Of a DNA stretch of 9,196 nucleotides, positions 1 through 6,967 are shown piece by piece. The stretch comes from Bacillota bacterium (GTDB lineage: Bacteria; Bacillota_A; Clostridia; Tissierellales; Peptoniphilaceae). The DNA lies in NCBI GenBank assembly GCA_023418535.1, contig JAEZZN010000033.1:1-9196 (forward strand), read 5' to 3'. Position numbers and translations under genes: made by a program. Below the pieces are notes generated by a model. That model worked only from the letters and a program-made list of their open reading frames with translations. It was not told the origin of the DNA and ran no database searches. Within the stretch, counting starts at the first letter, position 1. Every line of letters starts with the position of its first letter.

Positions 1-1
1 T

Positions 2-40
2 ATCACAATTATACATTATGGAGGATTTTTTGGTGCTTGA
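2..40 (+). CDS. Possible C-terminal tail of a gene cut by the left window edge
   Basis: An open frame enters from the left edge and ends at a TGA at 38-40. It reads ITIIHYGGFFGA before the stop. A GC-rich hairpin with a T-rich 3' flank follows 20 bases downstream, as expected for the end of a plus-strand transcript converging on the rny operon. Twelve residues are too few to recognise a family. The neighbouring hairpin resembles the ends of IS200/IS605-type elements, so the tail could belong to a transposase, but this is inference. It may also be noise. Confidence 0.25.
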   Translation: MTIIHYGGFFGA

Positions 41-59
41 AGCTAAAGCTTTTTTACCT

Positions 60-88
60 CCACCTGCATAGCAGGTGGTTTATTGTTT
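60..88 (+). terminator. GC-rich hairpin with T-rich tail: terminator or IS200/IS605-like end
   Basis: CCACCTGC at 60-67 pairs perfectly with GCAGGTGG at 71-78 around an ATA loop. A T-rich tail (TTTATTGTTT) follows on the plus strand, which fits a Rho-independent terminator for a gene entering from the left. It stands out because the surrounding DNA is extremely AT-rich. Short perfect hairpins of this kind are also the recognition structures at the ends of IS200/IS605 elements, which lack ordinary terminal inverted repeats. The sequence alone does not decide between the two. Confidence 0.55.
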
Positions 89-89
89 C

Positions 90-124
90 GTTCACTTACG
101 TTCACTCAACTCACTAAAGTGAAC
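90..124. repeat. Inverted repeat GTTCACTT/AAGTGAAC with internal TTCACT copies
   Basis: GTTCACTT at 90-97 is the exact reverse complement of AAGTGAAC at 117-124. A second copy of GTTCACT at 100-106 lies inside the 19-base loop and could pair with the same right arm, so two alternative foldings exist. A related TCACT lies at 111-115. The block starts 12 bases after the hairpin at 60-78, and together they make the most structured 65 bases of the left region. It may be part of a mobile-element end, but no transposase is visible in the window. Confidence 0.45.
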
Positions 125-277
125 AAATATGATTATAGAAATAGTATATCACATAATGAAAATATAGATAAATAGGAATAGGGGTAGTTAAAGTATTTGG
201 AATAATACAATTAGGAAGTTAGATAAAAAAATATAATAATATAGATTCAAAATTAGTATCATAAAATAAATGATGTT

Positions 278-429
278 TTAAATATATACAAGTAGAATAA
301 AAAATGTAAATCCTATAAAGATTAAGAAATAAATAAATTTAATTTTTATAAAATATAAATGAATTAATAATCCAGATAGAAATAATAAAATTTTTTATTA
401 TATAAAGAATTAATAAATAGGGCGATAAA
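278..429 (-). pseudogene. Possible remnant of a small membrane-protein gene with one frameshift
   Basis: The minus strand carries a 38-codon open frame (394 down to the TAA at 278) that is almost entirely hydrophobic. It contains segments such as KILLFLSGLLI and FIGFTFFILLVYI, like two membrane helices. Just upstream, a run of six A residues (minus strand, 391-396) separates it from a further short hydrophobic open stretch in another frame (FIALFINSLYN, 429 to about 397), so one slip in the run would join them. There is no start codon or Shine-Dalgarno site. T-rich DNA encodes Phe, Leu, Ile and Tyr by chance, so this is a weak call. Confidence 0.15.
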
Positions 430-480
430 TTAAATTGGATAGAATTTAATAGAAATAGGGATAATTTAACTTAAATCAAA

Positions 481-510
481 TTTGTCACAAAATAATGATT
501 TTGTGACAAA
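481..510. repeat. Perfect 13-bp-stem hairpin built on TTTGTCAC/GTGACAAA
   Basis: TTTGTCACAAAAT at 481-493 pairs without mismatch with ATTTTGTGACAAA at 498-510 around an AATG loop. No T-run follows on the plus strand. On the minus strand the stem is followed by a T-rich stretch (TTTGATTT), so a weak minus-strand terminator is possible. The same core (GTGACAAA and TTGTCAC) builds the pnp terminator at 6918-6949. It lies beside a slightly GC-richer island, and it may be an element boundary, a terminator relic or part of a non-coding RNA. Confidence 0.55.
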
Positions 511-639
511 GTATACCCAAAAGTACAAGATTGGAGAAATATCTTTAAATTCAGGACTTTTTGCGGTTTTGATCGTTTTTAATCTACATTACAAAAGAAA
601 TTAAAATTTCCAACAGCTTATTGTTTTATATTTTTTCTT

Positions 640-804
640 TTATTTCTTTTTTATTTTTAAGATGCAATTTATTTTATTCCTTATAGAATTTAAATAATTT
701 ATAATTTTATTAATTATCAATCTATATTTAATTAATTTACCTTCATTAACCTCATCAAATATATTTATACTATTAGAAACTGTATTTATAAGTTTGATTA
801 AAAT
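640..804 (-). pseudogene. Open stretch with protein-like composition; possible gene fragment
   Basis: A minus-strand frame stays open for 54 codons, from 804 to a TAA at 640-642, bounded upstream by an in-frame stop at 805-807. It contains no ATG or GTG codon and no ribosome-binding site. The first two thirds include Asp, Glu and Gly residues (NIFDEVNEGKLIKYR), followed by a Lys/Ile/Asn-rich tail. That is more protein-like than the surrounding DNA and suggests the 3' end of a decayed gene. I do not recognise a family. In DNA this AT-rich an open run of this length is uncommon but can arise by chance. Confidence 0.2.
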
Positions 805-854
805 TTATAATAAATTATCTTAATTATAGATTTTCTACAAATATTGTTTTAAAA

Positions 855-960
855 GAAAAAAACTATAAATACCTCTATCCATATAAATATATAGTATTTT
901 TTCAAATATTAGAAAAATATGAGGCTCTAATTTGCGTTCTAAGCGATTTAAAATACTATA
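855..960. other. Three arms able to form mutually exclusive hairpins
   Basis: Arm A (GAAAAAAACTATA, 855-867), arm B (TATAGTATTTTTTC, 890-903) and arm C (AAAATACTATA, 950-960) share the same pairing core. A and B pair over 13 base pairs with one bulged A at 896. B (890-900) and C pair perfectly over 11. B cannot do both at once, which is the architecture of an attenuator or switch. Within the B-C loop a further 6-bp stem forms (ATTAGA 908-913 with TCTAAT 926-931). All arms are AT-rich, and no gene that such a switch could control lies downstream, so a chance origin is realistic. Confidence 0.3.
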
Positions 961-1143
961 GCCATATAATTACATGACTGAAATAATGATATATAAAACG
1001 AGTTATAAAATATTAGAGTTTAGATTGCATCTCCATGATTATTTGTTTAAAAATATATAAATATTTATTTTAAGAAAAATTATTTCTTATACGTAACTAT
1101 ATACGGATATATTATTTTAGATTCGATGTACGATAAATATAAT

Positions 1144-1171
1144 AAGACGCATTCAAAAAAGAATGCGTCTT
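1144..1171 (-). terminator. Terminator of the ftsK-pgsA-recA-rny operon
   Basis: AAGACGCATTC at 1144-1154 and GAATGCGTCTT at 1161-1171 form a perfect 11-bp stem with a six-base loop (T residues on the transcribed strand). It starts 16 bases after the rny stop codon. The 3' flank on the minus strand is U-rich but interrupted (ATTATATTTAT), so termination may be less sharp than at the pnp terminator. It is the only strong hairpin between rny and the gene-poor region. Confidence 0.8.
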
Positions 1172-1187
1172 TAAGATTTTAATTAAA

Positions 1188-2732
1188 TTATTTAGCATAA
1201 GCTGAAGATCTAGTTTCTCTGATTATATGAACTTTAATCTTTCCAGGATATTCAAGTTCATCTTCAATTCTTCTTGCTATTTCGGATGCTAGTATAGTAA
1301 GTCTATCATCAGAAATCTTATCAGGTTCTACCATTATTCTTAATTCACGACCAGCTTGAATAGCATATGCTTGTTTAATTCCTTCATAAGAAGTTGCAAT
1401 AGCTTCCAGATTAGCTAATCTTGTTAAATAAGCGTCAATAGCTTCTCTTCTTGCTCCAGGTCTTGCTGCAGATATAGCGTCAGCAGCTTGTACTATCATA
1501 GCTTCAAGTGATTCGAAAGGTACATCAAAGTGATGTGCTTCTACTGCATGTACGATATCTTCTTTAATTTTATATCTTCTCAATAAGTTTACACCAATCT
1601 CAACATGAGTACCTTCAATTTCATGGTCTAGAGCTTTACCGATGTCATGTAATAATCCTGCACGTCTTGCCACTTTATCATTAATACCAATTTCACGTGC
1701 TAGAGTTGCTGCTATATTTGCAACCTCTACAGAGTGCCATAGTACATTTTGTCCATAAGATGTTCTAAAATATAAAAGTCCTAGTGTACGAACTAAATCA
1801 GGATGTAATCCATGAACTTTAGCTTTTTCACAAGCTTCTTCGCCATATTCTTTTATAGATTGTTCAATTTCTTCTTGTGCTTTTTCGTACATTTCTTCAA
1901 TTCTTGCAGGATGGATTCTTCCATCAAGCATTAATTTTTCCAATGTAATTCTTGCAATTTCTATTCTTTTTAAATCGAAAGAAGAAAGAACAATAGCTTC
2001 AGGAGTATCATCAATTATGATATCTACACCAGTTAAACTTTCAAAGGCTCTAATATTTCTACCTTCACGTCCTATAATTCTACCTTTCATCTCATCATTA
2101 GGTAGAGATACTACTGCTACTGATGATTCTGCTACAGTATCTGAAGCTTGTCTTTGTATAGCTTGAACTATAATATTTTTAGCTATTTTTGTTTGATTTT
2201 CTTTTATACGAGCTTCATAATCACGTATAATTAAAGCTTTTTGATGTTCAGCTTCTTCTTCAGCCTGATCTAAAACTATTTGTCTAGCTTCTTGATCAGT
2301 TAAACCAGAAATTCTTTCTAGTTCTACAATTTGTTCTTGTAGTTTTTTATTTACTTCAAGTTCTTTTAATTCAACATTTTTTAATTTTGAATTAAGAGAA
2401 TCATATTTTCTGTCTACTTTATCTATTTTTTTATCTAAGTTTTCTTCTTTTTTCACTAACCTTTGTTCGTGCTTGTTGAGTTCTTTACGTCTTAATTTTT
2501 CTTCATGTTCAATATTTTGTTTTAATTTAAAAATTTCATCTTTTGCTGTCAACATTGCTTCTCTTTTTAGAGATTCAGCGTCTCTGTTTGCATCTTCAAT
2601 AATTCTCATTGATAAATTTTTAGCAGAATTTAATTTCTTTTTATCTGAGTTTGTTTTTATAATTGAAACAATAATATAACCTATTAAAACTCCCACTATT
2701 AAGGCTAGGATATAATATCCTATATTATCCAT
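1188..2732 (-). CDS. rny: Ribonuclease Y (membrane-anchored mRNA-decay endonuclease)
   Basis: RNase Y makes the initiating endonucleolytic cuts in mRNA turnover in Firmicutes and sits at the membrane as a partner of degradosome proteins. The 514-residue product has the full family layout and usual length. It has an N-terminal membrane helix (about 5-25), a long charged coiled coil (about 30-180), a KH RNA-binding domain with GREG at 221-224, and an HD metal-phosphohydrolase domain. The HD residues are visible: H333 (LWHSVE), H362-D363 (LLHDIGKA), an EAHH motif at 398-401 and D418 (AADAIS). The ATG is preceded by AAGAGG at a normal distance and lies 12 bases after the recA stop, so rny is translated from the recA transcript. 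recA-rny adjacency is common in Firmicutes. Nothing appears truncated. Confidence 0.97.
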   Translation of the reverse strand: MDNIGYYILALIVGVLIGYIIVSIIKTNSDKKKLNSAKNLSMRIIEDANRDAESLKREAMLTAKDEIFKLKQNIEHEEKLRRKELNKHEQRLVKKEENLDKKIDKVDRKYDSLNSKLKNVELKELEVNKKLQEQIVELERISGLTDQEARQIVLDQAEEEAEHQKALIIRDYEARIKENQTKIAKNIIVQAIQRQASDTVAESSVAVVSLPNDEMKGRIIGREGRNIRAFESLTGVDIIIDDTPEAIVLSSFDLKRIEIARITLEKLMLDGRIHPARIEEMYEKAQEEIEQSIKEYGEEACEKAKVHGLHPDLVRTLGLLYFRTSYGQNVLWHSVEVANIAATLAREIGINDKVARRAGLLHDIGKALDHEIEGTHVEIGVNLLRRYKIKEDIVHAVEAHHFDVPFESLEAMIVQAADAISAARPGARREAIDAYLTRLANLEAIATSYEGIKQAYAIQAGRELRIMVEPDKISDDRLTILASEIARRIEDELEYPGKIKVHIIRETRSSAYAK

Positions 2733-2744
2733 TTTTACCTCTTG

Positions 2745-3806
2745 CTATATTATTTTATCTGTATCAGTTTCTTCTATTTCTTCATTTTCTGTATTAGAGA
2801 TTTTATCTGATTTTAAATTGTTTCTAATTTCAGTTTCAATGCTATTTAATAAATCTTGATTATTTGATAAGAATTCTTTAACATTTTCTCTACCTTGACC
2901 AAGTCTCTCACCCTTATAACTATACCAAGAACCTGCTTTATCAACAATTCCAAAATCAACAGCTGCATCTAATAATGTTCCAGTTTTTGATATACCTGTT
3001 CCATACATTATGTCAAATGTTGCAGATTTAAATGGTGGAGCAACTTTATTTTTAACAACTCTAACTTGAGTTATATTTCCAATTACATCATCGCCATTTT
3101 TAATTTGTTCTTTTCTTCTAACGTCTAATCTTACACTAGAGTAAAATTTAAGTGCTATACCACCTGTAGTAGTTTCAGGGTTACCAAACATTATACCGAT
3201 TTTTTGTCTTAATTGATTTAAGAATACTACTGTACAATTTGATTTTGCTACAATAGCAGTAAGTTTTCTTAAAGCTTGAGACATAAGTCTCGCAAGTAAA
3301 CCAACATGAGTATCCCCCATGTCCCCTTCGATTTCAGCTCTAGGAACTAAAGCTGCTACTGAGTCAATTATAATTATATCAACTGCATTTGATCTTACTA
3401 ATGATTCGGTAATTGCAAGTGCTTGTTCTCCTGTATCAGGTTGTGAAAGCACTAGATTTTCAATATCAACACCTAAATTTTTTGCATAATTAACATCAAG
3501 AGCATGCTCAGCATCTATAAATGCAGCGATTCCGCCTAATTTTTGAGCTTCAGCAATACTATGAAGTGCTAATGTAGTTTTACCAGATGATTCTGGACCA
3601 TATATTTCAACTATTCTTCCTCTTGGTAATCCACCAATTCCTAAAGCAATATCTAATGTTAATGCTCCAGTAGGAATAGCTTTAATATCATTGCTTTGAG
3701 GAGAATCTCCTAAAACCATTATAGATCCTTTACCATAAGATTTTTCAATCTGTGTTAAAGCACGATCTAAGGCTTTTTTCTTATCTTTATCGATATTTTC
3801 AGTCAT
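2745..3806 (-). CDS. recA: Recombinase RecA
   Basis: RecA forms ATP-dependent filaments on single-stranded DNA, catalyses strand exchange, and triggers LexA self-cleavage in the SOS response. The 353-residue product is full length. It shows Walker [10 protein letters not shown] (70-78), the catalytic glutamate E100 in IDAEHALD, Walker B ending in D148 (VDIIIIDSV), loop L1 near 157-165 (EIEGDMGD) and loop L2 around 197-216 (NQLRQKIG to ETTTGG). It ends in an acidic tail (about 333-350), as is usual. AAGGAGG lies four bases before the ATG and overlaps the pgsA stop codon, only 9 bases upstream, which implies coupled translation. I see no promoter or LexA box directly in front of recA, so its expression should follow the operon promoters upstream of ftsK. 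cinA, which often precedes recA in Firmicutes, is absent here. Confidence 0.99.
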
Positions 3807-3815
3807 TATTCCTCC

Positions 3816-4364
3816 TTATATATTATCTAAATCTAAAACCTGTATATTTTTCATTAGATAATCCATACCGGAAAGTATAGTAAGTATAACTGAGATATAA
3901 AGAAATATATCGTATGCGATATTTGGAATAAATGTTAGTACACCGCTTAATAGATACAAAATTATTGTAATCATTTGGCTAGTTGTCTTTAATTTTCCGT
4001 AAATTGAAGCAGCTATTGTAATATTATTTGATGCTGCTAAAATTCTTAATCCATCTATTAGAAGTTCTCTAAAAATTATTATAATTACAGCCCATGCAGG
4101 TATAATTCCAGAACCTACTAAAACTAAAAATCCTGCTTGTGTAAGGACTTTATCTACTAATGGATCCATAAATTTACCAAATGTGGTAATTAAATTTCTA
4201 GATCTTGCAATATGACCATCTAAAAAATCAGTAGCAGAAGTTAATGCAAAAACAATAGCGGGTATAACGCTATTTACACCAAATATATTGTATATAATAA
4301 CAAATACTGGGACCATAAATAATCTAATTATAGTTAGTTTATTCGCTAAATTCATTTTCAACAT
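3816..4364 (-). CDS. pgsA: CDP-diacylglycerol-glycerol-3-phosphate 3-phosphatidyltransferase
   Basis: PgsA transfers the phosphatidyl group from CDP-diacylglycerol to glycerol-3-phosphate, the committed step to phosphatidylglycerol, at the inner face of the membrane. The complete CDP-alcohol phosphotransferase signature is present. In the 182-residue product I prefer, it is D46, D49-G50, A53-R54, G63, D67 and D71 (DFLDGHIAR, then GKFMDPLVD). Several hydrophobic segments surround it, as the family requires. Starts are possible at GTG 4373, ATG 4364 and ATG 4355. I choose ATG 4364 because AGAAGGTGA (4378-4370) lies five bases before it, a near-perfect Shine-Dalgarno site that would be inside the coding sequence if the GTG were used. 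The start overlaps the end of ftsK by 26 bases, so translation is probably coupled. The family also contains cardiolipin and phosphatidylserine synthases, but the length and the location beside recA favour PgsA. Confidence 0.93.
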   Translation of the reverse strand: MLKMNLANKLTIIRLFMVPVFVIIYNIFGVNSVIPAIVFALTSATDFLDGHIARSRNLITTFGKFMDPLVDKVLTQAGFLVLVGSGIIPAWAVIIIIFRELLIDGLRILAASNNITIAASIYGKLKTTSQMITIILYLLSGVLTFIPNIAYDIFLYISVILTILSGMDYLMKNIQVLDLDNI

Positions 4365-6591
4365 TATCTTCACCTTCTAATGTATTTTCATATTCTTCTA
4401 ATGTAACTAAAATATTTCTTGGCTTTGCGCCATCTTGTTCACTTACAATACCATTTCTAGTCATTTGATCAATTATACGACCAGCTCTAGCATATCCAAC
4501 TCTAAATCTACGCTGAATAGCAGAGATTGATGCAGTGTTTTCTGTGAGTACAAATTTTACTGCCTCGTCATATAATTCATCTACATCATCTAATGAATCT
4601 TGTGGTTTGTATGTTTCTTCAATTTTTTTATTAAATGTTTCATCTACTTTTATAGTTTCGTTTTTATTTTTAATATAAGTAACAACTCTTTCAACTTCTT
4701 GATCTGTTACAAAAGCACCTTGAGCTCTCTTTGGCTTAGGTAATTTACTTGGATAATACAACATATCACCTTTTCCAAGAAGCTTTTCAGCACCTGATGA
4801 ATCTATAATAGTTCTTGAATCGACATTAGATGCAACTTGAAAGGCGATTCGTGAAGGTATATTAGCTTTTATAATACCTGTAATTACATTAACACTTGGC
4901 CTTTGTGTTGCAATTATTAAATGTACACCACTAGCTCTACCCATTTGAGCAAGTCTAGTGATATAGTTTTCTACATCTTTAGAAGCTTCCATCATTAAGT
5001 CAGAAAGCTCATCAATTATGACAACTAAATATGGAAGTTTTTCCAATGTATTATTTTCGTCATCTTCTTCAACTTTTGAATTATATGCTTTGATGTCTCT
5101 TGCACCAGATTTCGCAAATAATTCAAATCTATCAGTCATTTCTTTTACTGCTTCATGTAGAGAAGCTGTAGCCTCGACTGCTTTAGTAACTACTTTTCGT
5201 CCTTTTAAATGTGGAATACCAGAATAAATCTTAAGTTCAACCATTTTAGGGTCTATCATTATAAATTCCACTTCTTTAGGAGAGTATTTGTATATAATAC
5301 TCATAATTATTGCATTCATCAATACAGATTTACCTGATCCGGTAGCACCTGCGATTAGTAAATGCGGCATTTCATTAATTTGAGCATATAAAGGTTTGCC
5401 AAAGATATCTTTACCTATAGCAACAGTTATATCCTCATCATGTTTTTGAAATTCTTCTGTTGAAATTAATTGTCTGAATCCAACTACATCCTTATTTCTA
5501 TTAGGTACCTCTATTCCTACATAGGGTTTTCCAGGTATTGGAGCTTCTATTCTTATGCTAGAAGAAGCTAGAGCCATAGCTAAATTATTTGATAAATTTA
5601 CTATTTTACTAACTTTAATACCTGATTGTGGTTTTACTTCATAAGAAGTTACAGTAGGACCATTATTGATATTTACAACTTCTGATTCAATACCGAAACT
5701 GCTTAAAGTTTCAGTTATAATCTCAGCGTTTTTTAATAAAATACCTTTATCATCCACTGCTGATTCAGAAGGATTAATTAACAAATCAACTGGCGGTTTT
5801 ATATATTCATAATCTTCGTCATAAATAATACCTACCTGTCCAGTTTCTTCAACTTTTTGAATCACTTCTTCAGATTTTTCATCTGAATGTTCACCTGAAT
5901 TATGATATGAAATCATTGGTTCTAAATTATTATTGTTGAAATCATCATTTTCAATAACTGTCTTTTTATCTTCATTTTTATTAATTTTTGCTATTGACTT
6001 CTCTCTTATGTTATTTGTTTTTTTATCTTTTACAAATAATGCTCTAATGTTATAAAAAATACTTTTTATAAAATCTGCCATAGATTTATCAAATAAGTAA
6101 AAATAAGAAATGAAAATAGTCAAAACAGTAAATATATAGATTCCTATATCAGCAATTAGTGAATTAAATACAAAATAAATAGATGCAATAATTACACCAA
6201 CTCCTGTATAATTTAAAGCTTGATTATATGAGCTTGCAATAGTTTGATTGAAACTTAATTCATCACCATTCATAAAAAATGTTGCTGCAGTTAATGACAA
6301 CATAATAAATAAAATAGTGAAAGTTAATAGTTTCCATTTAAACTCTATCCAGAGCTTTTTATTTCTAAAAGAGTAGAAAACAAACATTGCATAAAATGGA
6401 GCAATATAAGCTGCCAAACCAAAAAGTATAAACATTCCTTGGCTAAATATTAATCCAATTATCCCCATTTTATCTTTTAACAATACTGTAGAAGTAGTTA
6501 AAATAAATAAAAATAATACAATTATTGACATAGCAATAGTTGATTGATTTTTGGATTTATTTTTTGCTCTTGATGATTTATTTTTAGTCAT
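4339..6591 (-). CDS. ftsK: DNA translocase FtsK/SpoIIIE
   Basis: FtsK/SpoIIIE is a hexameric, membrane-anchored ATPase that pumps DNA through the division septum and aligns chromosome termini. From the chosen start the product has 750 residues. Four or five hydrophobic segments occupy about 19-170. A low-complexity Asn/Glu/Lys linker (about 190-260) follows, then the motor domain with Walker A AGATGSGKS (414-422) and Walker B LVVIIDELSD (about 522-531). A C-terminal winged-helix gamma domain (about 672-716, RRFRVGYARAGRIID) reads polar DNA motifs. I start at ATG 6591 because GGAGG lies four bases upstream. The alternative TTG at 6612 has no ribosome-binding site and would put that site inside the gene. 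It is the first gene of the operon. Whether it serves vegetative division or sporulation cannot be told from sequence; a non-sporulating coccus would use it in division. Confidence 0.97.
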   Translation of the reverse strand: MTKNKSSRAKNKSKNQSTIAMSIIVLFLFILTTSTVLLKDKMGIIGLIFSQGMFILFGLAAYIAPFYAMFVFYSFRNKKLWIEFKWKLLTFTILFIMLSLTAATFFMNGDELSFNQTIASSYNQALNYTGVGVIIASIYFVFNSLIADIGIYIFTVLTIFISYFYLFDKSMADFIKSIFYNIRALFVKDKKTNNIREKSIAKINKNEDKKTVIENDDFNNNNLEPMISYHNSGEHSDEKSEEVIQKVEETGQVGIIYDEDYEYIKPPVDLLINPSESAVDDKGILLKNAEIITETLSSFGIESEVVNINNGPTVTSYEVKPQSGIKVSKIVNLSNNLAMALASSSIRIEAPIPGKPYVGIEVPNRNKDVVGFRQLISTEEFQKHDEDITVAIGKDIFGKPLYAQINEMPHLLIAGATGSGKSVLMNAIIMSIIYKYSPKEVEFIMIDPKMVELKIYSGIPHLKGRKVVTKAVEATASLHEAVKEMTDRFELFAKSGARDIKAYNSKVEEDDENNTLEKLPYLVVIIDELSDLMMEASKDVENYITRLAQMGRASGVHLIIATQRPSVNVITGIIKANIPSRIAFQVASNVDSRTIIDSSGAEKLLGKGDMLYYPSKLPKPKRAQGAFVTDQEVERVVTYIKNKNETIKVDETFNKKIEETYKPQDSLDDVDELYDEAVKFVLTENTASISAIQRRFRVGYARAGRIIDQMTRNGIVSEQDGAKPRNILVTLEEYENTLEGEDNVENEFSE
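4370..4378 (-). promoter_or_regulatory. Shine-Dalgarno site that sets the pgsA start
   Basis: The minus strand reads AGAAGGTGA, eight of nine bases matching AGGAGGTGA, and lies five bases before the ATG at 4364. It is inside the last codons of ftsK and overlaps the competing GTG at 4373, which argues against that GTG being the start. Confidence 0.7.
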
Positions 6592-6617: not shown

Positions 6618-6626
6618 ATTATACCA
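6618..6626 (-). promoter_or_regulatory. Proximal extended -10 promoter of ftsK (P2)
   Basis: TGGTATAAT on the minus strand is a perfect -10 hexamer with the TG extension that makes a strong -35 unnecessary. The best -35 at 17 bp is poor (TTCAAT). A transcript starting about seven bases downstream, near 6611, would have a leader of about 20 bases that contains the ftsK ribosome-binding site. It lies clear of the LexA box, so it could give basal, damage-independent expression. Confidence 0.5.
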
Positions 6627-6662: not shown

Positions 6663-6691
6663 ATTATACGAACATTTGTTCTATTTAGCAA
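6663..6691 (-). promoter_or_regulatory. Distal sigma-A-like promoter of the ftsK operon (P1)
   Basis: On the minus strand TTGCTA (6691-6686) is followed after exactly 17 bases by a perfect TATAAT (6668-6663). The start would be near 6656, about 65 bases before the ftsK ATG. The spacer contains a GAAC-N4-GTTC palindrome, so a repressor bound there would block polymerase directly. The spacing, a perfect -10 and a 4/6 -35 make this the best promoter in the window. Confidence 0.65.
6669..6682 (-). promoter_or_regulatory. Putative LexA (SOS) operator
   Basis: The minus strand reads AGAACAAATGTTCG. It matches the Gram-positive SOS box CGAACRNRYGTTYC at all positions except the two outermost bases, and carries the invariant GAAC-N4-GTTC core. 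It lies entirely between the -35 and -10 of P1, the usual place for LexA repression. It stands before an operon that contains recA, a classic SOS gene, which strengthens the call. No lexA gene is in the window, so the regulator itself is inferred. Confidence 0.7.
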
Positions 6692-6912: not shown

Positions 6913-6949
6913 AAAAAAGTGACAAATTTCTAAAATGAAACTTGTCACT
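6913..6949 (-). terminator. Rho-independent terminator of pnp
   Basis: On the minus strand AGTGACAA (6949-6942) pairs with TTGTCACT (6925-6918). One C/A mismatch and a further 4-bp stem (GTTTC-side TTTC/GAAA, 6927-6930 with 6937-6940) follow, around a six-base loop. A run of six T residues (6918-6913) follows immediately. It starts 18 bases after the pnp stop codon and separates pnp from the ftsK operon. Confidence 0.9.
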
Positions 6950-6967
6950 CATTCAATATTATTTAAC

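What the first reader, a model, noticed from the sequence alone, without database searches (positions are those of the whole stretch)
6663..6691. LexA box inside the promoter of an ftsK-pgsA-recA-rny operon
The spacer of a TTGCTA-17-TATAAT promoter contains GAACAAATGTTC, matching the Gram-positive SOS operator core. In many Firmicutes the SOS box sits directly before recA. Here it would control the whole four-gene operon, so DNA damage would raise a DNA translocase, a phosphatidylglycerol synthesis enzyme and the main mRNA-decay endonuclease together with RecA. Coupling RNase Y and PgsA to SOS would be unusual. The motif and spacing are seen directly; LexA control is inferred from the consensus.
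Basis: partly seen in the sequence, partly recalled or inferred. Interest (0 to 1): 0.7.

Follow-up and report, generated by a model that had tools for sequence, protein, structure and literature searches.

The report
SOS switch heading ftsK–pgsA–recA–rny operon
A bacterium close to Helcococcus sueciensis carries a DNA-damage (SOS) repressor site inside a promoter at the head of a four-gene operon, so recA is probably switched on together with a DNA pump, a membrane-lipid enzyme and an RNA-degrading enzyme; the site itself is classical, its place is unusual.

Summary
The window is 97% identical to Helcococcus sueciensis DSM 17243 (G001), which has the same site in the same promoter and, about 9 kb away, an intact lexA whose own promoter carries near-identical boxes. 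LexA control is well supported, not shown.

Two corrections. A proximal promoter element (TGGTATAAT, 6626–6618) lies between box and ftsK and is conserved in all six genomes compared, window included: the SOS promoter is probably a second, added one, as in E. coli ftsK. And the box is missing in the nearest other genomes (ftsK 68–70%), so it is a lineage-specific gain.

Beyond the finding: outside the family, 21 of 21 lexA+ genomes examined keep the box before recA. Inside it, 17 of 71 lexA+ genomes have a box before ftsK (4 of them weak); of 70 with recA in view 8 have one before recA, none both. The ftsK location arose at least twice. Box plus adjacent rny was seen only in window and G001. 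Verdict: new variant of a known kind, moderately interesting.

The parts
6669..6682 (-). LexA operator (SOS box) AGAACAAATGTTCG; core GAACAAATGTTC 6670-6681
   Evidence: same site in G001 with one change (AGAACAAACGTTCG)
6663..6691 (-). P2: predicted SOS promoter, -35 TTGCTA 6691-6686, 17-nt spacer 6685-6669 filled by the box, -10 TATAAT 6668-6663
   Evidence: TTGTAA-17-TATAAT in G001; not seen in G002, G003, G032, G110
6618..6626 (-). P1: predicted LexA-independent proximal promoter, extended -10 TGGTATAAT (hexamer 6623-6618); no -35 recognised
   Evidence: TATG-N-TATAAT aligned in all six genomes compared; coordinates; one search lists only an overlapping weaker site 6639-6612
4339..6591 (-). 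ftsK (DNA translocase FtsK/SpoIIIE), ATG at 6591, GGAGG 6600-6596
3816..4373 (-). pgsA (CDP-alcohol phosphatidyltransferase family), GTG start as listed, overlaps the ftsK end
2745..3806 (-). recA
1188..2732 (-). rny (RNase Y)
1144..1171 (-). hairpin AAGACGCATTC-N6-GAATGCGTCTT just after rny, possible operon terminator
   Evidence: read by eye; not scanned with the terminator tool
6917..6950 (-). terminator-like hairpin after pnp, separates pnp from this operon
   Evidence: 1 found, 0.1 expected

Best explanation
The palindrome is a genuine LexA operator. Without DNA damage, LexA sits between the −35 and −10 of promoter P2 and keeps RNA polymerase off; a conserved proximal promoter P1 without an operator keeps basal expression of the genes going. 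After damage, RecA on single-stranded DNA triggers LexA self-cleavage, P2 opens, and one transcript raises FtsK, PgsA, RecA and RNase Y together. In this lineage the operator was gained at the operon head; the lexA+ relatives examined outside the family keep it directly before recA, where this compact operon leaves only about 10 nt. Shown by sequence: the site, its place in P2, its match to lexA-promoter boxes, a lexA with the cleavage motifs in the near-identical genome, gene order and gaps, conservation of the P1 element, absence of the box in sister genomes. Inferred: that P1 and P2 are used, that LexA binds, that the four genes share a transcript, that damage induces them.
For: Exact site and promoter. 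20.2 bits on a matrix trained only on lexA promoters. Same site and layout in H. sueciensis DSM 17243. Intact lexA there with three boxes in its promoter and AAG, GDSM and TVKRL stretches aligned with PDB 7b5g chain A, a LexA repressor. Another box in G001 sits before a calcineurin-like phosphoesterase–AAA pair of the YhaO/YhaN or SbcD/SbcC kind, and the like gene has a box in G002, G003 and G032. C. difficile LexA was tested by SPR with a recA operator oligo holding AGAACAAATGTTTG, 13 of 14 letters the same (PMC4234289, passages). In the family, boxes before ftsK go with lexA: 17 of 71 lexA+ and 1 of 57 lexA− genomes.
Against: No expression or binding data. No genome is held for the window, so lexA is inferred from G001. 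Box absent in G002, G003, G032, G110. The bare core is not enriched in G001 (7 sites, 11 for the reversed control); 3 of those 7 are not SOS-like. P1 may blunt induction, though P1 itself has no recognised −35. Window and G001 are so alike that the box is not more conserved than its surroundings. The lexA/ftsK-box association is not corrected for kinship.
Confidence: 0.78

Rival explanations
1. The operator is real but has little effect on the operon: P1 drives nearly all ftsK-pgsA-recA-rny transcription and P2 adds a small damage-inducible share, felt mainly as a modest rise in RecA.
For: The P1 element is the conserved one of the clade and P2 is absent in sister genomes; LexA at 6669-6682 lies upstream of where P1's -35 region would be, so it would not block P1 directly (coordinates).
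Against: P2 matches 10 of 12 promoter letters; the scan lists no site on the P1 hexamer 6623-6618, only an overlapping 9-of-12 site at 6639-6612. G001 keeps P2.
Confidence: 0.35
2. Chance palindrome in an AT-rich intergenic region, with no LexA binding.
For: Core pattern not enriched in G001; absent in sister genomes.
Against: 20.2 bits, while 0.035% of 2,840 resampled upstream regions reach 19; exactly inside a promoter spacer; kept in G001; near-identical letters in the lexA promoter.
Confidence: 0.07
3. Operator for another repressor with a similar palindrome, for example a phage-type S24 repressor.
For: G001 encodes a second protein matching the lexA model over its later part only (C2:55699-56070, 102 bits, below the cut-off).
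Against: The site matches the boxes in front of lexA itself, the expected autoregulatory sites.
Confidence: 0.04

Closest known systems
E. coli ftsK (dinH) SOS promoter
   Same: ftsK driven by two promoters, one of them SOS-regulated (PMC4080785, passages)
   Different: Not linked to recA, pgsA or rny in E. coli (recalled); operator type differs (CTGT-N8-ACAG, PMC4234289); in E. coli the SOS promoter is the essential one and the other is dispensable, here the box-free promoter is the conserved one
Gram-positive recA SOS box (C. difficile recA; B. subtilis type GAAC-N4-GTTC)
   Same: Same operator type, 13 of 14 letters as in the C. difficile recA oligo used in SPR
   Different: There the box lies directly before recA (C. 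difficile -39/-41); here it lies at the operon head about 2.8 kb upstream of recA
C. thermocellum LexA regulon (DAP-seq, PMC8457756, passages)
   Same: Three sites before lexA; recA in the regulon
   Different: The SOS passage names no ftsK, pgsA or rny; the paper's one mention of ftsK is under another regulator, Xre_0026; its full target lists were not read
ftsK-headed LexA boxes in a 14-genome group of the same family
   Same: Box in or next to the ftsK promoter, none before recA, recA tightly packed downstream
   Different: There two more ORFs (437-448 aa and 407-420 aa, by size and place perhaps rimO and cinA, recalled) lie between ftsK and recA; no rny behind recA where read; box -23 to -53 from the start, in 11 of 14 just after the -10; separate origin on the tree

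Membership tests
Gram-positive LexA operator (SOS box) | GAAC-N4-GTTC palindrome with the flanks of lexA-promoter boxes | tested here: met
   Exact core; 20.2 bits
Gram-positive LexA operator (SOS box) | Overlaps promoter elements | tested here: met
   Box lies in the 17-nt spacer of P2; promoter use itself not tested
Gram-positive LexA operator (SOS box) | Genome encodes LexA with HTH and S24 domains and cleavage motifs | tested here: met
   In G001 (97% identical); window's own genome not held; meaning of the motifs recalled
Gram-positive LexA operator (SOS box) | Same motif in the lexA promoter of that organism | tested here: met
   Three boxes in G001
Gram-positive LexA operator (SOS box) | Conserved at the orthologous promoter in sister species | tested here: not met
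   Present in G001 only; absent in G002, G003, G032, G110
Gram-positive LexA operator (SOS box) | LexA binds in vitro; gene induced by DNA damage | not testable with these tools
   needs gel shift and RNA data
Single SOS transcript ftsK-pgsA-recA-rny | Same strand, no room for promoters or terminators between genes | tested here: met
   Overlap, ~10 nt and ~13 nt gaps; co-transcription itself not shown; promoters inside the genes not excluded
E. coli-type two-promoter ftsK with one SOS promoter | One LexA-controlled and one LexA-independent promoter before ftsK | tested here: inconclusive
   P1 and P2 predicted and the P1 element conserved; start sites not mapped

The most novel reading that the evidence does not exclude
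In this bacterial family the SOS operator has moved, more than once, from recA to the head of the ftsK…recA operon, seen only where the gap before recA is lost (−25 to +10 nt), so that FtsK and whatever else lies in the operon became SOS genes together with RecA. In the H. sueciensis lineage this put RNase Y, the main mRNA-decay endonuclease, and PgsA under LexA: a damage-inducible change of mRNA decay and anionic lipid supply.
Probability: 0.45. Interest if true: 0.62.

Novelty: new variant of a known kind. Interest (0 to 1): 0.48.

Why it matters
It shows how an SOS regulon can be rewired: repressor site and key target (recA) are conserved, but the site sits at the operon head, which drags unrelated essential genes into the damage response. 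The family offers a natural series (box before recA, box before ftsK, no box, no lexA) on which the use of inducible RecA can be tested. RNase Y under LexA would be a direct link between DNA damage and mRNA decay.

Tried and rejected
Genome of the window: none held, so G001 stands in. Rfam: no match at gathering scores in the window. Bare core pattern as a regulon finder: 7 sites in G001 against 11 for the control. The refined pattern, both strands, sites against control: G001 11 and 10, G002 10 and 12, G003 9 and 3, G032 15 and 10, G014 5 and 6; clearly above control only in G003, so I used a matrix trained on lexA promoters. Boxes elsewhere in the ftsK–recA regions: of 28 hits of 12 bits or more in 376 kb (window and lexA+ family genomes), 6 lie neither in the ftsK promoter nor directly before recA (G006, G010, G030, G034, G127, G137). 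uvrB: the best site in the G001 locus (11.2 bits) is not before uvrB, nothing above 5.4 in G002 and G003; boxes before uvrB in G014, G032 and one of two G110 copies (best two sites per locus printed). A first RecA-only tree used 72 of 93 rows, the others lost through my start guesses or short sequence; redone with RecA plus FtsK, 92 of 93 rows. A six-row DNA alignment had two rows in the wrong orientation and was redone. Some ftsK starts in my table are misplaced inside the gene (for example G127, G137, G141), which can hide a box; G030 and G127 have boxes over 500 nt upstream of my start that I did not interpret. Thresholds: 11 bits first (16 genomes), then 10.5 (17, adding G145 at 10.9); G019, G034, G145 and G150 (10.9–12.0) are weak one by one, and the lexA promoter of G034 shows no box with at most one mismatch. 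Outside the family 21 of 24 genomes were examined; G037, G040 and G052 were not fetched.

Full report
What is there. On the minus strand the window carries, after a terminator-like hairpin behind pnp (6950–6917), the promoter TTGCTA-17-TATAAT (6691–6663) with AGAACAAATGTTCG in the spacer (6669–6682), then a second promoter-like element TGGTATAAT (6626–6618), GGAGG and the ftsK ATG at 6591. Then follow ftsK, pgsA, recA and rny with an ftsK–pgsA overlap, about 10 nt before recA and about 13 nt before rny, and a hairpin at 1144–1171 read by eye.

Is it more than chance. GAAC-N4-GTTC occurs once in 9,196 bases with 0.04 expected; 7 of 200 shuffles had one or more. I trained a 14-position matrix on 123 boxes (at most one core mismatch) in front of lexA in 50 of 51 genomes examined (G034 had none). 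The window site scores 20.2 bits, the next best in the window 8.1. Of 2,840 first-order Markov resamplings of 300-nt ftsK upstream regions, 0.035% reached 19 and 1.4% reached 10.5; of 354 windows inside ftsK genes, 3 reached 10.5 and none 14.

The organism. No genome is held for the window. FtsK as query found one close locus, Helcococcus sueciensis DSM 17243 (L001); DNA identity is 97.0% over a 5,586-position alignment. That genome (G001) has a lexA of 202 bits, about 9 kb from the ftsK promoter on the same contig. Its protein has the LexA DNA-binding and S24 domains and aligns with PDB 7b5g chain A through AAG, GDSM and TVKRL; that these hold the cleavage site and the Ser/Lys pair is recalled. 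Its promoter has CGAACATCTGTTCT, AGAACAAATGTTCT and AGAACATTTGTTTT. The ftsK promoter of G001 has AGAACAAACGTTCG, again in a 17-nt spacer before TATAAT.

The rest of the G001 regulon, as far as looked. A box lies before a calcineurin-like phosphoesterase followed by an AAA protein of the Rad50/SMC kind (L010), similar to YhaO/YhaN or SbcD/SbcC; the like gene has a box in G002, G003 and G032. B. pumilus yhaO, yhaN and yhaM are listed as lexA/SOS genes (PMC3896406, passages). Among the two best sites printed per locus, none lies before uvrB in G001, G002 or G003. The bare core is not enriched in G001: 7 places against 11 for the reversed control. Four of the seven are SOS-like (two at lexA, one at ftsK, one at the phosphoesterase); the other three lie in a terminator-like hairpin or inside genes.

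Two promoters. Aligning ftsK upstream regions of six genomes (window, G001, G002, G003, G032, G110) shows TATG-N-TATAAT at nearly the same distance from the start in all six, while the P2 box and −10 appear only in window and G001. The simplest reading is an old, LexA-independent P1 and a younger SOS promoter P2. P1 has no −35 that the scan recognises; it lists only an overlapping 9-of-12 site. Two promoters weaken the claim that LexA controls the whole operon and bring it close to E. coli ftsK, which also has two, one SOS-regulated (PMC4080785, passages).

Where the box sits in relatives. Outside the family I examined 21 of the 24 genomes (G037, G040, G052 not fetched); all 21 have lexA, a box of 11 bits or more before recA and none before ftsK. 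In the family (130 genomes; lexA search) I counted as lexA+ the 72 with a near full-length match above 165 bits; 71 have an ftsK region (G014 has none), 57 others are lexA− and G117 was not examined. With 10.5 bits for ftsK (300 nt upstream) and 11 for recA (160 nt): 17 of 71 lexA+ genomes have a box before ftsK; of the 70 with recA in view 8 have one before recA, 0 have both, 45 have neither. Of 57 lexA− genomes 1 has a site before ftsK (G093, at −299) and, of 55 with recA in view, 2 before recA (G111, G113). Fisher's test for ftsK boxes and lexA gives p = 0.0002, uncorrected for kinship. The window is not in these counts (one search prints it in a separate row).

Gap and box. By my estimated starts, the gap before recA is 49–147 nt in 28 of 29 genomes with a recA box (exception G006, −9) and −25 to +10 nt in all 17 ftsK-box genomes and the window. 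In the 21 genomes with neither box in which pgsA directly precedes recA the gap is 9–66 nt, 57–66 in five of them (G008, G028, G114, G115, G126), so a short gap does not by itself explain the loss of the recA box.

Tree. On 92 of 93 RecA+FtsK rows (quick IQ-TREE, SH-aLRT only; G146 dropped) 14 ftsK-box genomes form one group (95*), window and G001 another (100*), joined with G002 (98*) and then G003 (100*), which have no box; G145 and G150 are single weak cases. The ftsK-box label needs at least 4 changes, 4 forced by starred branches; shuffles average 16.7. The H. sueciensis site is therefore most simply independent of the 14-genome group. Geometry agrees: in 11 of the 14 (G004, G005, G009, G011, G061–G067) the box lies just after the −10; in G019, G034 and G154 just before it.

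RNase Y. rny starts 10–16 nt after recA in window, G001, G002, G003, G110 and G032, and 29–44 nt after it in G116 and G122–G125, which group with them on the tree (17 rows with G001, 100*). Of these only window and G001 have a LexA box at the operon head. Of 20 further loci read behind recA (G032 is one of them), 17 are from recA-box genomes: rny lies 156–418 nt away in 6 (G044, G045, G055, G058, G059, G060) and 1,890 nt in G018; G042 shows rny but no recA end; 9 show no rny within the stretch, two of them without a recognised recA end (G048, G050). The two ftsK-box genomes in that set (G005, G009) show none. G119 has rny 226 nt away behind a hairpin seen by eye. Among 79 loci with over 2 kb behind recA, 10 lexA+ ftsK-box genomes show no rny. 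So a LexA box with rny directly behind recA was seen only in window and G001. In G061, G145, G150 and G154 (ftsK box) recA is followed by a phosphoesterase–AAA pair (Pfam only for G061).

Literature. Of the ten searches, none listed a paper that by title or abstract describes ftsK-headed recA operons under LexA; 0 papers hold both Helcococcus and LexA. Passages, not whole papers, were seen of PMC4234289, PMC4080785, PMC3998124, PMC3896406, PMC8457756 and PMC9380542. The library lacks most subscription papers, so absence there is weak evidence.

Verdict. The operator is real with high probability; SOS control of the operon is likely but shared with P1; conservation is confined to the H. sueciensis lineage, with a parallel arrangement elsewhere in the family.

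Noticed in passing
family of G001, 70 lexA+ genomes with recA in view: 45 of 70 have no box reaching threshold before recA or ftsK; in those whose lexA promoter was examined (for example G002, G003, G008, G010, G016, G020, G025, G033) lexA itself has at least one box with at most one mismatch. RecA may be uncoupled from LexA there.
   Followed up: partly
family of G001: Only 76 of 130 genomes have a lexA match over the cut-off, 72 of them near full length: lexA seems lost repeatedly within one family, or missing from incomplete assemblies.
   Followed up: no
window 1-1187: No ORF of 60 aa or more in 1.19 kb of very AT-rich sequence left of rny; only parts match H. sueciensis. Hairpin TTTGTCACAAAATAATGATTTTGTGACAAA at 481-510 (by eye).
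   Followed up: no
L010:1507-3011 (G001), L182, L220, L228: LexA box before a phosphoesterase-AAA pair (YhaO/YhaN or SbcD/SbcC kind) in G001, G002, G003 and G032; another phosphoesterase-AAA pair follows recA in other family members.
   Followed up: partly
L235, L233, L234 (uvrB of G001, G002, G003): No LexA box seen before uvrB in these three, though G014 and G032 have one.
   Followed up: partly
G030 and G127, over 500 nt upstream of the estimated ftsK start: Boxes GAAACATTTGTTCA and AGAACATTAGTTTG, possibly heading a longer operon.
   Followed up: no
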